Origin: Bacteroidota bacterium
GTDB lineage: Bacteria > Bacteroidota > Bacteroidia > AKYH767-A > OLB10
DNA length: 45,805 nucleotides
Reading direction: 5' to 3'
Assembly: GCA_018268195.1 (NCBI GenBank)
Contig: JAFDWZ010000019.1
Location: 1-45,805, forward strand
The notes beneath the pieces were generated by a model. The model searched no databases. It saw only the letters and a list, made by a program, of their open reading frames with translations, and was not told where the DNA came from. Below, piece by piece: positions 5,081 through 11,715 of this stretch (its first letter is position 1; every line of letters begins with the position of its first letter). Position numbers and translations under genes: made by a program.

Positions 5081-5221
5081 TTAATCCAACGGAAAACCGA
5101 AATACTTCATTGTTGCCTTATAGTCATTGAAATCAACTCCTGCATGGCAATGGTCTTTTGATTTTATATACAAGAACCCATCGCTCCATCTGCACCAAGT
5201 TACATTGCTATCATTAATAAT
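5081..5221 (-). pseudogene. 3' remnant of a protein-coding gene
   Basis: An open stretch of 46 codons ending in TAA at 5081-5083 reads like a real protein C-terminus: DSNVTWCRWSDGFLY, then HCHAGVDFNDYKATM and a final FGFPLD. It is preceded in frame by TGA (5222-5224) and has no plausible start near its beginning. The residue mix (Trp, Cys, His, aromatic) is unlike a random frame. I do not recognise the family. The simplest reading is the tail of a gene whose front part was lost. It faces the fusion gene across a shared hairpin terminator. Confidence 0.45.
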
Positions 5222-5400
5222 TCAGCTAATGCGAATAGAATTGTAACCTCAATTACCGGTATCTGACATTTTTACTCTTTAATTTTCTGATCATATTCTA
5301 CAATATCAAGTATCACACAGATGCAAACAATTGTTAACTTTCCTCTATTACAATTTAGTTGTAAATTTATTACAAAGATGCTTTTGTCGCCTTTAATTGT

Positions 5401-5422
5401 ATATACGTGAAAAGACGTATAT
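5401..5422. repeat. Inverted repeat ATATACGT-N6-ACGTATAT (copy 1)
   Basis: A perfect 8-bp dyad (5401-5408 with 5415-5422) around the spacer GAAAAG. It touches the stop codon of the LuxR-type gene (5422-5424). A near-identical copy lies at 6975-6994, just behind the response regulator gene. With no T-tract on either side it looks more like a protein binding site than a terminator. Confidence 0.6.
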
Positions 5423-5667
5423 TAATACTTAGCATTTATCAATTTCATAGCGTAGGCTTTTTTAATCATAGTTATTGTGTTCGAAGATTTAAATTTTTCG
5501 CGAAGATTTTGGCGATGTGTACGCACGGTATTCGTACTAATATTCAACTTTCGTGCAATTACCTTATCGGTTAATCCTTTGCATAGCAGTTGTAATACTT
5601 CCATCTCACGATTGGCAATGTCTTGCATATTCTCTGCTGATTTAATAAGTATAAAATTATTGAACAA
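5422..5667 (-). CDS. Stand-alone LuxR-type helix-turn-helix protein
   Basis: A short DNA-binding protein made of little more than a LuxR/GerE HTH domain: NREMEVLQLLCKGLTDKVIA, the recognition region STNTVRTHRQNLREKF, and a short lysine-rich tail. No receiver or ligand-binding domain is present. The frame begins at TTG 5667 (81 residues); an ATG at 5626-5628 would give 68 residues starting MQDIANREME, and I cannot decide between them. It resembles the output domain of the NarL-type regulator encoded at 7025-7684, so it may be a free-standing partner or the surviving tail of a response regulator. A TAG stop lies 9 nt upstream of the TTG in frame. Confidence 0.7.
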   Translation of the reverse strand: MFNNFILIKSAENMQDIANREMEVLQLLCKGLTDKVIARKLNISTNTVRTHRQNLREKFKSSNTITMIKKAYAMKLINAKY

Positions 5668-5897
5668 ATTAATATTCTATTCTAATAATCCGAAATACGA
5701 TTAAAGACATAACATTAAATCTATATTTTTTTGCTTTCCTCCCGCCCAACATCACGTTTTCGAAGGAGTGTTTGCACCCATTTCTTTTAGGCGTTCATCC
5801 TTAAGGTTGCATTTCATCTAAAAACCTATTCGCCAGAATGATTAAAGGAAATGTTTAGCCTTTTCTTTTTTTGATTTAACGTGTCATACCCTTGCTT

Positions 5898-6929
5898 CTA
5901 ATTGTAATCAACTAACATTGCGTCTCGCTGTACACATTCATTTCCTGATTGTTCCTGAGTAAAAATCTCATAAGGTCGGTTTTCTATGAAGATGATATTA
6001 TCAGAAATGTCATTTATTTCCCATTGTCGTTTTCTTCCGTCTATTTCATCATCCATAGAAATATATATTCTACCGTTTTCGGATATAATTCGCCAATAAC
6101 CGGAAAATTTATATAACTCAAAAGTTCCATAATCACCGGTTATCTGATTACCTGTTGTTATAAATCTGAAAGAACCAAAACCAAATCCACACAAAGTAAA
6201 CCTACGTTTTTTATCCGCATTTTCTAACTGCACCCCCTTACCATAAAAATAACGATTATCATTCATGCTGATAAGATCACGTTTATGCTTGTAATTAATC
6301 AATACTTTATCCTTTAGAAATTTTTGATACTCCTGTGCTGTTTTTGGCTTAGGTAAAGTGTGTTGTTTACTGTCATAATTTCTATTACCTTGCGAAGGTG
6401 TTTCAATTTCAAGTGACAAAGCCATTTGATTTAAGTTAACCTCTAACAACTGCATTGCATTTTTATTAGGCACGCAACCAAAAAACAAATAAGTATTGTG
6501 CAAAGGCATTTCCCGAAGCACAATCTGTCCTGCATAAGTTTTTCCTTGAAATTCCATCTTTGCCATAGCAGACATTAGTCCGAAATTATTATTATTGAAA
6601 GAAGAAGTAACCGAAAAAACATATCCATTTTGCTTAATGCTACTTTCTAATAATTGCTTTACTTGTTCCGTTGTTTGATTAATATGCACAGCGACTAAGT
6701 ATGGTGTTTCATCTGTCAGGCTAACAAACATGCAACTGTTTTGACTTTCAGATTCCTGAAAGCCTACAGGATAAGCCATAGATATATCCAGGTTTTTAAA
6801 ATATTTCTTATCGAATACTATTGCGTTATTGTCTGTGGGTTGTATAGTACTACCTGAATTACATGATCCAACCAACAACAAACAAAGCAGACTGCCTATG
6901 AAAAATAAGATTATTGAATCCGTCTTCAT
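5898..6929 (-). CDS. Lipoprotein of unknown function
   Basis: A 343-residue predicted lipoprotein. The N-terminus MKTDSIILFFIGSLLCLLLV leads to a lipobox ending GSC, so the mature protein would start with a lipidated Cys at about residue 23. The rest is soluble and beta-rich, and I recognise no domain or catalytic motif. A central stretch (about 60-175) looks like a self-contained domain, and a charged linker (about 180-210) leads to a C-terminal half rich in aromatic and acidic residues. It starts 95 bp behind the response regulator gene and could be a target or output of that two-component system; this is inferred from position only. Confidence 0.75.
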   Translation of the reverse strand: MKTDSIILFFIGSLLCLLLVGSCNSGSTIQPTDNNAIVFDKKYFKNLDISMAYPVGFQESESQNSCMFVSLTDETPYLVAVHINQTTEQVKQLLESSIKQNGYVFSVTSSFNNNNFGLMSAMAKMEFQGKTYAGQIVLREMPLHNTYLFFGCVPNKNAMQLLEVNLNQMALSLEIETPSQGNRNYDSKQHTLPKPKTAQEYQKFLKDKVLINYKHKRDLISMNDNRYFYGKGVQLENADKKRRFTLCGFGFGSFRFITTGNQITGDYGTFELYKFSGYWRIISENGRIYISMDDEIDGRKRQWEINDISDNIIFIENRPYEIFTQEQSGNECVQRDAMLVDYN

Positions 6930-6974
6930 TTGGGTTAATTTCCCTCAAATGAATAGTAGATATTCAAGGCTTAC

Positions 6975-6994
6975 AATACGTAAAAAGACGTATT
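6975..6994. repeat. Inverted repeat AATACGT-N6-ACGTATT (copy 2)
   Basis: A perfect 7-bp dyad (6975-6981 with 6988-6994) around AAAAAG, matching copy 1 at 5401-5422 in core sequence, spacer length and spacer composition. It sits between the stop of the response regulator gene and the start of the lipoprotein gene, about 46 bp upstream of the lipoprotein ATG, where an operator could act. Confidence 0.65.
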
Positions 6995-7024: not shown

Positions 7025-7684
7025 CTAAATAAATTTATTTTCAATGGCAAACCTTACCAATGAGGCCGTATTGGGCAATTTAAGTTTGGTAAGCATATTC
7101 GTTCGATGTGTGTCCACGGTGCGAACGGATATAGCAAGAACCTCTGCAATTTTTTCATTGGTCAATCCTTCACAAATGAGTTTTAAAACATTTTGCTCAC
7201 GCTCGGTAATTAAATGTTTAGAAAAGGTGATGTAGTTTTCAGCATTTTGTTTTTCATTCGGGTTGCTACTTATGAAAAAAGCGCGTAATTGCTCACTCAA
7301 AAATATTTTTCCGCTTTTCACTTCCTTTATAGCTTCAATAATATCATCGGGACCATTACCTTTTAAAATATATGCATTAGCTCCTGCTTTTAATGCATTG
7401 CCAATAGTAGCAATGTCAGCAAACATAGATACAAATAATATTTTAGAGTTAGAGCAGTGTCTTTTAATTTCCCCACAGGCATATATACCATCCATTAAAG
7501 GCAGATTTACGTCCATCAAAATCCATTCGAACTTTTCCTTTAATGCTAATTCAACAGCCTCTTTACCGGTAGTAGCTGTAAAAAATGTTTTCAGGTTTAA
7601 TTCGCTTTGTAAAATAAGTTTCAATCCTTCCGTAAAAAGTTTATGATCGTCAACTATTAAGACTTTTGAATTCTTATTTTCCAT
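7025..7684 (-). CDS. NarL/FixJ-family response regulator
   Basis: A 219-residue two-component regulator. The N-terminal receiver domain has the acidic pair VDDHKLF (Asp12-13), the phospho-acceptor Asp58 in LMDVNLP, the switch Ser in LFVSMF and the conserved Lys in YILKG. The C-terminal LuxR HTH (about 155-212) reads TEREQNVLKLICEGLT, then SVRTVDTHRTNML. The ATG at 7684 lies 6 bp after the stop of the histidine kinase gene, so the pair is co-transcribed and almost certainly cognate. The target genes are unknown; the inverted repeat at 6975-6994 upstream of the lipoprotein gene is a reasonable candidate operator. Confidence 0.93.
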   Translation of the reverse strand: MENKNSKVLIVDDHKLFTEGLKLILQSELNLKTFFTATTGKEAVELALKEKFEWILMDVNLPLMDGIYACGEIKRHCSNSKILFVSMFADIATIGNALKAGANAYILKGNGPDDIIEAIKEVKSGKIFLSEQLRAFFISSNPNEKQNAENYITFSKHLITEREQNVLKLICEGLTNEKIAEVLAISVRTVDTHRTNMLTKLKLPNTASLVRFAIENKFI

Positions 7685-7690
7685 AAATTT

Positions 7691-9046
7691 TCATTCTAAC
7701 GTTAGGTATATATTCACATCCGTTCCCTTCATTTTTTGTGAGTTAATTTCTATTTCGCCTTTTAACAGCACTGTACGTTGTTTAATGTTTTCAAGTCCAT
7801 TACCGTTCCTTATACTTCCCATATCAAAACCGATCCCATCATCAGCATACATAAACACAACTCTATCCCTTTCACGTGTAATGTCAATAGTAATTTTATT
7901 CGCTGAAGCATATTTAATAGTATTATTAATCAATTCCTGAGTAATACGAAATAGATGATGCTCTGTTTGTTTACTCAACCTCTCTTCCATCCCGTGATGA
8001 TTTAATGCAAATGAAATTGTATTTATAGGGATTATCTTGTTTACCAACTCTTCAACTGCTGCTATATAGCCATTTTCAACAAGCGTGTTTTGTTGCATGT
8101 CACTCAAAATATATCTGAATTTAACAACTGTATCATGTAAAATCTTCAATACAGTAGCAATAGTTTTATTATCAGATTTGTGGCTTTCAAATTTATTAAA
8201 GTGATACAGCAGATTTTGAGCTGCTGACAGCTGTGACCCCAAATCATCATGTAACTCGCGTGATATATTATCTCGAAATTGAAGAAACGAAATTTCAAGC
8301 TTTTGTCTTTTTGCTATTTCTTTAAGCAAACTTCTTTCATAATCAGATTTTTGCTTCTCGATAAGTCTTGTTTTGTAACCAAGGCCTGTTGTGTAAGTGA
8401 GCAATTCAGCTATAACACAAATAAGTAAAGGCAAATGCCGATCACAATAGAATATATTATAATTCGCTTCCAATTCATATAAAAGGATATCAAATACAGA
8501 GCCTACCAAAATGAATGATGCTCCCAACATTGCAAATCGCTCCAAAGGAATGCTCTTTCTTAAAAACTCCTTAATGATAAAAGCTGATGCTATAATTGTA
8601 AGTACTGCCATTGACTTGAACAACAGGAATCGCACTTCGTTGTCATAATTCATGATTGACAAAACCATTGACAAGAATACATATGTCAAAAGAAACATCT
8701 CCAATTTTTTTACCCATTTGCATAACTCAGGCCGTACCTTCTGTAACGATAGAAATGAACGAGAGAAACTATAGTATAGAAATATTGAAAACGGAGGTAA
8801 TGTAATGCTCACAGAAAAGAATATTTTTTCATCAATAAGACTAAAAGGGTAAAAATCTAACTGCGCTTTGTATAAACTAATGCCATATAATATGGTTGTG
8901 AACATATATGCAATGTAATAGAGGTGGTCCACTCTTTTATTTAAAAGCCATTGCACAAATACATAACACATCTGAAACCCAACAATGGATATGAAGATTG
9001 TTAATCCAAAAAGTTTACTCTCCTCAGATACAAAAAGTAAGTCCAT
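7691..9046 (-). CDS. Membrane sensor histidine kinase (HisKA_3 / NarX type)
   Basis: A 451-residue sensor kinase. The N-terminal half (about 1-215) holds about six to seven hydrophobic segments and no extracellular sensor domain, so it probably senses within or at the membrane. A coiled linker (LLKEIAKRQKLEISFL) leads to the HisKA_3 dimerisation domain with the phospho-acceptor His in SRELHDDLGSQLSAAQNLL. A HATPase domain follows, with the N-box NNTIKYA and G-boxes DDGIGFD and NGLENIKQR. The stop is 6 bp from the ATG of the response regulator. The signal is unknown. No clear TAnnTTTG promoter is seen upstream. Confidence 0.92.
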   Translation of the reverse strand: MDLLFVSEESKLFGLTIFISIVGFQMCYVFVQWLLNKRVDHLYYIAYMFTTILYGISLYKAQLDFYPFSLIDEKIFFSVSITLPPFSIFLYYSFSRSFLSLQKVRPELCKWVKKLEMFLLTYVFLSMVLSIMNYDNEVRFLLFKSMAVLTIIASAFIIKEFLRKSIPLERFAMLGASFILVGSVFDILLYELEANYNIFYCDRHLPLLICVIAELLTYTTGLGYKTRLIEKQKSDYERSLLKEIAKRQKLEISFLQFRDNISRELHDDLGSQLSAAQNLLYHFNKFESHKSDNKTIATVLKILHDTVVKFRYILSDMQQNTLVENGYIAAVEELVNKIIPINTISFALNHHGMEERLSKQTEHHLFRITQELINNTIKYASANKITIDITRERDRVVFMYADDGIGFDMGSIRNGNGLENIKQRTVLLKGEIEINSQKMKGTDVNIYLTLE

Positions 9047-9969: not shown

Positions 9970-11715
9970 TTACCTGCTTCGGGTTATGAGCCTGGTATAA
10001 GTATTATTAATGGTGCTTACCTTTATGAGATAATTACCCGGTAGAATTTCTTTAGTGTTTACTGTTATTTCATTGGCTTCAGTGGTTGTTAGGTTCAGGT
10101 CTATGCTTTGTATGAGTTTTCCCTCTACACTATACAATTTGATAGATTGTATTTCACCTGCAGGTTCATTCATGCGAATGCTGAAAGTGTTAAGAAAAGG
10201 ATTAGGGAAAACCATCATGTTGCCATTCTGGATATTATCGTCAGCCTTACGCATGGCAATTGGTGTCTGCATCTGATCTCCTGTTGAAATCATTACCTGA
10301 TGATTCATCAGACAACCATTTCCGTCTTTTATTACTACTGCGTAAATGCCCTGCGGAAGTTGCATGCGCTCCTTACTGTTTACACCATCACTCCAGATAT
10401 AAGCATAAGGCGGCATACCTCCAAGAATCTGCAATGCAATTTGTCCATCAGCAGCTCCTTGAATGGTTTCATCTTTTACTGTTGCCAGTACACTCATCAC
10501 TTCAGGCTGTTTGATATTAAAAGTGTTGCTGTATTTTTTTCCTGCAGCATCAAGTATCACCACTTTATATTCTCCGGCAGCTTTGTTGTTTATCGCTGAG
10601 CCTGTGCTACCGTCTGACCATTCATAAGTATATGGCTTTGTGCCTCCGCTTACATTCAGTTTTACCGAACCCGAAGTTGCACCGTTGCACACTACATGTT
10701 TTACTTGATAGGTTACCTGAATTGGTGATTTCTCATTCACCGTAAAATAGTCAGCTCCCATACATTGATTTCCGTCTGTAACACGAACTGCATAAACCCC
10801 CTCTTCCACATTATTCAGCGTTGCCGACTCTTCCATGTTAGACCACAGATAAGAATATCTTCCATTGCCTCCTGTAACCTGAAGTGCTATGGTGCCATTG
10901 CTTTTATTTATTTCAGCATCCGTTACAACAGCATGTATTTTAATAGGCTCAGGATTCACTAATTTTACATCAATATCCGAAGTACAACCATTATTATCTT
11001 TCACCACTGCATGATAGCTTCCTGCTTTCAATCCACTCACATCTTCTGTAACAGCTCCGTTTGACCATGTATACGTGTAAGGTGCTTTTCCTCCTCTTAC
11101 TTCAAGGTCTATAAGTCCGTTATCATCACCAAAGCAAACCGGATTATACTTGGCAACCACAACATCCAATACTTTAGAACGCTCAACCATAATGTTGGCA
11201 ATTTTATTACATCCATTTACATCCACTACTCTTACTTCGTAACTGCCGGCAGAAACCTTTTCCAAATTCTGGTCATGGATATTGTCCGACCATGTATAGG
11301 TATAGGGCTGTGTGCCACCGGTAACTATAATGTTTGCCGAGCCATTTTTTGAAAAACAACTCTCCGGTGATGTCTGTGAATGAATGTTCAGTGGATAGGG
11401 CTCAGTGATATTTATGGTTTGGGTAGCGGTATTGCCATTCTTGTCAGTAACACTCACTACATAATTTCCTGCTTTAATGTTGAGCAGGTTCTGTTGCGAA
11501 ACTCCATCCGACCATTGAATCTGGTAGGGAGCCTTTCCTCCTTTAATTTCCATTTGAATACTGCCATCAGCAGCACCATAGCATGAAACATTTTTAGCCT
11601 TGTAGGAAAGCTTTATCTGATTTGTGGCAGCATAAAGCTCCTTAGGCTGTCCGATGTAGTTAATCATCAGTAGTACGATGATGGCTTTTGTGGTGTTTTG
11701 AATTGTCTTAATCAT
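9970..11715 (-). CDS. SprB-repeat surface protein with T9SS sorting domain
   Basis: A 581-residue secreted protein. An N-terminal signal peptide (about 1-30) is followed by six tandem SprB-type repeats of about 75-80 residues, each with a core like GGKAPYTYTWSNG and a tail like AGSYxVxVTDxNGC. Paired Cys residues occur in most but not all repeats: repeats 4 and 6 have lost the first Cys. The last 80 residues form a type A T9SS sorting domain (VFPNPFLNTFSI ... NYLIKVSTINNTYTRLI), so the protein should cross the outer membrane and be anchored or released there. SprB itself is a giant gliding adhesin; this is a far smaller relative, so adhesion is possible but gliding is not implied. Confidence 0.9.
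   Translation of the reverse strand: MIKTIQNTTKAIIVLLMINYIGQPKELYAATNQIKLSYKAKNVSCYGAADGSIQMEIKGGKAPYQIQWSDGVSQQNLLNIKAGNYVVSVTDKNGNTATQTINITEPYPLNIHSQTSPESCFSKNGSANIIVTGGTQPYTYTWSDNIHDQNLEKVSAGSYEVRVVDVNGCNKIANIMVERSKVLDVVVAKYNPVCFGDDNGLIDLEVRGGKAPYTYTWSNGAVTEDVSGLKAGSYHAVVKDNNGCTSDIDVKLVNPEPIKIHAVVTDAEINKSNGTIALQVTGGNGRYSYLWSNMEESATLNNVEEGVYAVRVTDGNQCMGADYFTVNEKSPIQVTYQVKHVVCNGATSGSVKLNVSGGTKPYTYEWSDGSTGSAINNKAAGEYKVVILDAAGKKYSNTFNIKQPEVMSVLATVKDETIQGAADGQIALQILGGMPPYAYIWSDGVNSKERMQLPQGIYAVVIKDGNGCLMNHQVMISTGDQMQTPIAMRKADDNIQNGNMMVFPNPFLNTFSIRMNEPAGEIQSIKLYSVEGKLIQSIDLNLTTTEANEITVNTKEILPGNYLIKVSTINNTYTRLITRSR

What the first reader, a model, noticed from the sequence alone, without database searches (positions are those of the whole stretch)
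5401..6994. Paired inverted repeats behind two LuxR-type genes
ATATACGT-GAAAAG-ACGTATAT (5401-5422) and AATACGT-AAAAAG-ACGTATT (6975-6994) share the core ATACGT, the 6-nt spacing and an A-rich spacer ending AAAAG. One abuts the stop of the stand-alone LuxR HTH gene; the other follows the response regulator gene and sits upstream of the lipoprotein gene. I did not see a third copy in the window. Dyads of this size fit LuxR/NarL-type dimer sites, so this may be the operator of the local two-component system, controlling the lipoprotein. It could instead be a shared 3'-end RNA hairpin, but there is no T-tract.
Basis: partly seen in the sequence, partly recalled or inferred. Interest (0 to 1): 0.6.

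Follow-up and report, generated by a model that had tools for sequence, protein, structure and literature searches.

The report
Operators of a local two-component system
Two matching DNA palindromes, plus a worn third copy, sit just in front of promoters beside a sensor-regulator gene pair and recur beside the same genes in related bacteria, so they are very probably the switches through which that pair controls its neighbours, including a surface lipoprotein.

Summary
The two dyads are the only exact TACGTN6ACGTA in the 3.0-Mb genome, and both lie beside 2 of its 6 LuxR-type HTH genes. Read on the minus strand, the direction of the genes, each is followed by a Bacteroidota-type promoter at one fixed spacing: dyad, 3 nt (TTG in 8 of 10), N20, nnnnTTTR. 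A degenerate third copy with that spacing lies upstream of the stand-alone LuxR gene (5696-5711). Three other genomes of the genus carry the sites at the orthologous locus. Over 10 sites TTTR is at that offset 10 times; no other offset scores more than 1. The inferred centre (-43.5) and the TAC-N10-GTA frame resemble NarL 7-2-7 sites abutting the -35 element at -44.5 (PMC7419079). An RNA hairpin is not conserved. The 5401-5422 site precedes only the C-terminal remnant of a lipoprotein gene that is intact behind the same site in a relative. The dyad and spacing recur across Bacteroidota, often beside NarL-type regulators. Which HTH protein binds, the signal, and the lipoprotein's role remain inferred or unknown.

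The parts
6975..6994 (-). Site A: dyad AATACGTCTTTTTACGTATT (16-bp core 6977-6992), operator in front of the lipoprotein promoter
6946..6976 (-). Promoter elements of site A: TTG at 6974-6976 (-33), TTCATTTG at 6946-6953 (-7); transcript start inferred near 6941
   Evidence: numbering of the -7 element from PMC6847099
5401..5422 (-). Site B: dyad ATATACGTCTTTTCACGTATAT (core 5404-5419), directly behind the LuxR gene and in front of a lipoprotein remnant
5373..5380 (-). -7 element of site B, CATCTTTG; at the -33 place TAT (5401-5403) instead of TTG
5696..5711 (-). Site C: degenerate third copy TATGTCTTTAATCGTA in front of the stand-alone LuxR gene
5665..5672 (-). -7 element of site C, TTAATTTG; overlaps the TTG start of the listed ORF, so translation more likely begins at ATG 5628
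5422..5628 (-). Stand-alone LuxR/GerE HTH protein, likely 68 aa (ORF listed as 5422-5667, 81 aa)
   Evidence: start inferred from site C and from the relatives' proteins
5898..6929 (-). Lipoprotein of unknown family (343 aa), target gene of site A
   Evidence: no Pfam match; no homologue in the other genomes of the family
7025..7684 (-). NarL-type response regulator (Response_reg + GerE), most likely binder of the sites
7691..9046 (-). Histidine kinase (7TMR-DISM_7TM, HisKA_3, HATPase_c)
5081..5146 (-). Remnant: last 21 codons plus stop of a lipoprotein whose intact homologue follows site B in G022 (L059:12337-12897)

Best explanation
The dyads are DNA operators, each joined to the upstream end of a Bacteroidota housekeeping-type promoter that reads leftward (minus strand). 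A NarL/LuxR-type dimer, most likely the phosphorylated response regulator encoded at 7025-7684, binds the 16-bp dyad in the 7-2-7 manner and, from about -43.5, directly against the -33 element, helps RNA polymerase start at weak promoters. Site A drives the lipoprotein, the degenerate site C drives the stand-alone LuxR protein of about 68 aa, and site B drove a lipoprotein gene now reduced to its last codons. The stand-alone HTH protein probably acts on the same sites as a feed-forward or feedback partner. Shown by sequence: the sites, the spacing, conservation, synteny, the remnant. Inferred: binding, dependence on phosphorylation, activation rather than repression, which HTH protein binds, and the role of the small LuxR protein.
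For: Only two exact copies in 3.0 Mb, both here, beside 2 of 6 GerE genes. Sites at the orthologous HK/RR/LuxR locus in G021, G022 and G023, and at a paralogous HK-RR-lipoprotein locus in G022. TTTR at one offset in 10 of 10 sites, next best offset 1. In Bacteroidota matches from the species collection TAnnTTTR is at N20 in 19 of 41 (mean 0.39 per offset), in other phyla 0 of 26. A NarL-type HTH ORF is within 1.5 kb of 13 of these 41 sites. The frame TAC-N10-GTA and the place against the -33 element match NarL 7-2-7 sites at yeaR and ogt, the latter centred at -44.5 (PMC7419079; -7 numbering from PMC6847099). HK-RR loci with a site but no stand-alone LuxR gene point to the RR (G022:C36; L110 and L120).
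Against: No binding, start-site or expression data. At 28 of the 41 Bacteroidota sites no NarL-type ORF lies within 1.5 kb, so other regulators may own part of them. The promoter -7 elements in this genus often lack the TA. Site B is perfectly kept in three genomes where no intact target gene follows, which the model explains only by recent loss or an unseen product.
Confidence: 0.75

Rival explanations
1. The stand-alone LuxR protein, not the response regulator, is the main binder; the dyads are its autoregulatory and target operators, and the two-component system acts on it indirectly.
For: In all four genomes a site precedes the stand-alone LuxR gene and another lies directly behind it.
Against: HK-RR loci without such a gene still have a site between the RR and the next gene (G022:C36, though degenerate; L110, L120).
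Confidence: 0.25
2. The sites are operators for repression: the bound dimer covers the -33 region and blocks RNA polymerase.
For: The dyad abuts the -33 element; no activity data exist.
Against: NarL sites at this position activate (PMC7419079); the weak -7 elements of the genus (TA missing in most) suggest dependence on an activator; a repressor would not need one fixed spacing to the -7 element.
Confidence: 0.12
3. The dyads act as RNA hairpins at the 3' ends of the RR and LuxR transcripts (stabiliser or terminator).
For: Both follow stop codons and can fold alone (-4.2 and -5.8 kcal/mol).
Against: No T-run; the stems are A+U-rich and weak; site C does not fold; degenerate copies lose one arm without compensation and keep the promoter-proximal arm; fixed spacing to a -7 element; no Rfam match.
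Confidence: 0.05
4. Chance or a recent local duplication, without function.
For: Short dyads arise by chance (1.16 expected in the window at up to 2 mismatches); A and B have partly similar flanks in the raw sequence.
Against: Kept at the orthologous locus in four genomes with fixed promoter spacing, while the rest of this genome has no exact copy.
Confidence: 0.01

Closest known systems
NarL-dependent promoters yeaR and ogt of E. coli (7-2-7 operator abutting the -35 element)
   Same: 16-bp inverted repeat in the frame TAC-N10-GTA, directly upstream of the -33/-35 element, centre near -44; NarL-type regulator with a HisKA_3-type kinase
   Different: Inner bases differ (TACGTnT against TACYYMT); Bacteroidota -33/-7 promoter; signal unknown; sites found only at one locus of the genome
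Stand-alone GerE-type HTH regulators (GerE of Bacillus; own knowledge)
   Same: A protein consisting of little more than the LuxR-type HTH domain
   Different: Lies beside a two-component system and behind the same operator type; targets are not spore genes
Bacteroidota housekeeping promoter TTTG / TAnnTTTG (PMC6847099, PMC2483708)
   Same: TTG at -33 and TTTR of the -7 element at the expected spacing
   Different: A dyad is joined to the -33 element and the TA of the -7 element is often missing in this genus

Membership tests
NarL-type 7-2-7 operator of a two-component system | Two 7-base elements as inverted repeat, 2 bp apart, TAC...GTA at the ends | tested here: met
   16-mer TACGTNT-TT-TNACGTA; frame met, inner bases differ from the E. 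coli consensus
NarL-type 7-2-7 operator of a two-component system | Located upstream of a promoter of a target gene, near the -35/-33 element | tested here: met
   Fixed spacing to TTTR in 10 of 10 sites; 19 of 41 with full TAnnTTTR at N20 in Bacteroidota
NarL-type 7-2-7 operator of a two-component system | A NarL-type regulator and its kinase are encoded nearby and co-occur with the sites | tested here: met
NarL-type 7-2-7 operator of a two-component system | Specific binding of the regulator dimer | not testable with these tools
   needs a footprint or EMSA
Bacteroidota -33/-7 promoter | TTTG (-33) and TAnnTTTG (-7) | tested here: inconclusive
   TTG in 8 of 10 and TTTR in 10 of 10 genus sites, but the TA is missing in most
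Intrinsic terminator or 3'-end RNA hairpin | Strong G+C-rich stem followed by a T-run, stem kept by compensating changes | tested here: not met

The most novel reading that the evidence does not exclude
TACGT-N6-ACGTA-TTG-N20-TAnnTTTR is a general Bacteroidota activator-promoter module used by NarL/LuxR-type regulators, in which the outer TACGT is shared and the central six bases tell one regulator's sites from another's (NTTTTN, RTAAAT and CAnnTG types seen); small stand-alone HTH proteins like the one here share operators with a neighbouring response regulator.
Probability: 0.4. Interest if true: 0.6.

Novelty: new member of a known kind. Interest (0 to 1): 0.45.

Why it matters
Operators of two-component regulators in Bacteroidota seem little described: I found no account of this one in the open-access papers searched. 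A recognisable operator-plus-promoter word lets one predict regulons, correct start codons and find target genes of uncharacterised NarL-type systems, with binding sites that can be tested directly. For this genus it outlines a self-contained signalling cassette with exchangeable surface-protein cargo.

Tried and rejected
A genome-wide regulon: with up to 3 mismatches plus TTTG this genome gives 8 hits against 20 for the reversed control, so beyond A, B and C nothing stands out. The near-match at C28:35162 (TACGTAAAAAGTAGTA) is about 24 kb from the nearest GerE gene and lacks the -7 spacing. Lipoprotein homologues in the family: none. Own dyads beside the other four GerE genes: only weak TAC-N10-GTA matches without promoter spacing. 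Dyad plus TTG without the -7 condition in 295 class genomes: only part of the 23 hits have the spacing, the others look like chance. Paper searches found no description of the site; the library lacks most subscription journals. Rfam: nothing. A mobile-element-end reading was dropped because the sites keep promoter spacing and synteny. A last Pfam scan of downstream genes failed on coordinates and was not repeated.

Full report
OBSERVATION. On the minus strand, the strand of all genes from the kinase to the LuxR gene, they read TACGTCTTTTTACGTA (site A, 6977-6992) and TACGTCTTTTCACGTA (site B, 5404-5419), with arms extending to 7 and 8 bp. In the whole genome (3,005,802 bases, 71 contigs) these are the only exact TACGTN6ACGTA; the reversed-letter control pattern occurs 8 times per strand. 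The genome has six GerE/LuxR-type HTH genes; two are the response regulator and the stand-alone LuxR gene of this locus.

SURROUNDINGS. Gene order on the minus strand: histidine kinase (7TMR-DISM_7TM, HisKA_3, HATPase_c; 9046-7691), NarL-type response regulator (7684-7025), site A, lipoprotein (6929-5898; no Pfam match, no homologue in the 23 other genomes of the family), site C, stand-alone LuxR HTH gene, site B, remnant gene.

RELATIVES. Kinase homologues at 37-45% identity occur in the three other genomes of the genus. G021 and G023 (apparently MAGs OLB10 and WAS_Bin_1, from matching contig lengths) have two exact sites each, one before and one directly behind the stand-alone LuxR gene. G022 (apparently UBA6661) has at its C101 locus a two-mismatch site before the LuxR gene and an exact site behind it that precedes a collagen-like lipoprotein. 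At a second, paralogous locus (C36) it has HK-RR-site-lipoprotein with no stand-alone LuxR gene seen. The two G022 lipoproteins are homologous (29% identity) and share the end YEATMxHFGLPLD. The window carries only that end (HAGVDFNDYKATMKYFGFPLD*, 5146-5081, 71% identity over 21 aa) behind site B. Site B is therefore best read as the promoter of a lipoprotein gene lost here. In G021 and G023 no homologue follows it; the sequence there runs into a terminator-like hairpin (by eye).

GEOMETRY. In all 10 sites of the genus TTTR begins exactly 27 nt after the 16-mer; no other offset has more than one. The layout is dyad, 3 nt (TTG in 8 of 10), N20, nnnnTTTR. This matches the Bacteroidota -33/-7 promoter (TTTG/TAnnTTTG; -7 element at -12 to -5 in F. 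johnsoniae, PMC6847099), except that the TA is often missing. By that numbering the dyad spans -51 to -36, centre -43.5. The third copy, C (TATGTCTTTAATCGTA, 5696-5711), obeys the same spacing and lies upstream of the stand-alone LuxR gene, where all three relatives also have a site. Its -7 element overlaps the TTG start listed for the ORF, so the true start is probably ATG 5628 (68 aa); in the relatives too an ATG lies just before the HTH.

WIDER DISTRIBUTION. A scan of 84,980 species genomes for TACGTNTTTTNACGTATTG gave 65 stretches. In the 41 Bacteroidota matches TAnnTTTR lies at exactly N20 in 19 cases (mean 0.39 per offset; N19 none, N21 one) and TTTR at that place in 27; in 26 matches from other phyla none do. 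A NarL-type HTH ORF lies within 1.5 kb of 13 of the 41 Bacteroidota sites (5 of them in this genus) and of 2 of 26 in other phyla. With about 6 such genes per 3 Mb, as in this genome, about 1% would be expected (own estimate). A search of 395 class genomes with the dyad of any centre plus promoter, one mismatch allowed, gave 35 hits in 24 genomes and none for the reversed control, with other centres such as RTAAAT and CAnnTG. At two of these loci the site touches a NarL-type regulator or LuxR-type HTH gene (L155, L158), and several hits precede secreted or lipoprotein genes.

MECHANISM. NarL binds 7-2-7 inverted repeats; at yeaR and ogt such a site abuts the -35 element, at ogt centred at -44.5 (PMC7419079). 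The present 16-mer has the same frame (TAC-N10-GTA) and position, so activation from just upstream of RNA polymerase is the most likely mode. The RR is favoured as binder because several loci have HK-RR plus site without a stand-alone LuxR gene (G022:C36, L110, L120). The stand-alone protein, itself behind such a site, probably shares the operators. These last steps are inference.

ALTERNATIVES. An RNA hairpin is unlikely: no T-run, site C does not fold, degenerate copies lose one arm without compensation, and the promoter-proximal arm is the better kept. Repression cannot be excluded. Other regulator families may own some of the phylum-wide sites, since 28 of 41 have no NarL-type gene within 1.5 kb.

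LIMITS. No binding, start-site or expression data. G021 and G023 are close relatives, so their sites are not independent. The literature search covers open-access papers only. The signal sensed and the role of the 343-aa lipoprotein are unknown; a surface or envelope role is a guess from the kinds of target.

Noticed in passing
window 5404-5419; L058:11189; L061:13899: Site B is letter-for-letter identical in three genomes although no intact gene follows it; in G021 and G023 a terminator-like hairpin (GGCATTGGC..GCCAATGCC, T-run) follows about 130 nt on, so a short RNA is possible there.
   Followed up: partly
L061:11801-13444 versus window 5898-6929 and L058: The slot between RR and stand-alone LuxR gene is variable: a lipoprotein here, a T9SS-sorted 547-aa protein in G023, nothing in G021; it looks like an exchangeable cargo slot. 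The G023 insert shows no dyad of its own.
   Followed up: partly
L058:10223-10850: The G021 response regulator is split into two overlapping frames, a frameshift or an assembly error.
   Followed up: no
L157, L172, L189, L199, L201-L203 (genome G265): One genome has several TACGTRTAAATACGTATTG sites with the same promoter spacing (two more at N21), apparently another regulon with a different centre.
   Followed up: no
L102, L103, L146 (one Flavobacterium contig), L119, L123, L139, L145: Flavobacterium-type loci carry the NTTTTN dyads next to an HK/RR pair or in front of lipoproteins and large proteins of unknown role; three sites lie on one 144-kb contig.
   Followed up: partly
L124, L140, L144: A TACGTATTTTTACGTATTG-N20-TAnnTTTA site is kept in front of a ruvB-like gene in three Flavobacteriia-type genomes, with no NarL gene near; possibly a different regulator.
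   Followed up: no
window 9970-11715: SprB-repeat protein with a T9SS sorting domain, two genes from the kinase; G022 has a similar one near its locus.
   Followed up: no
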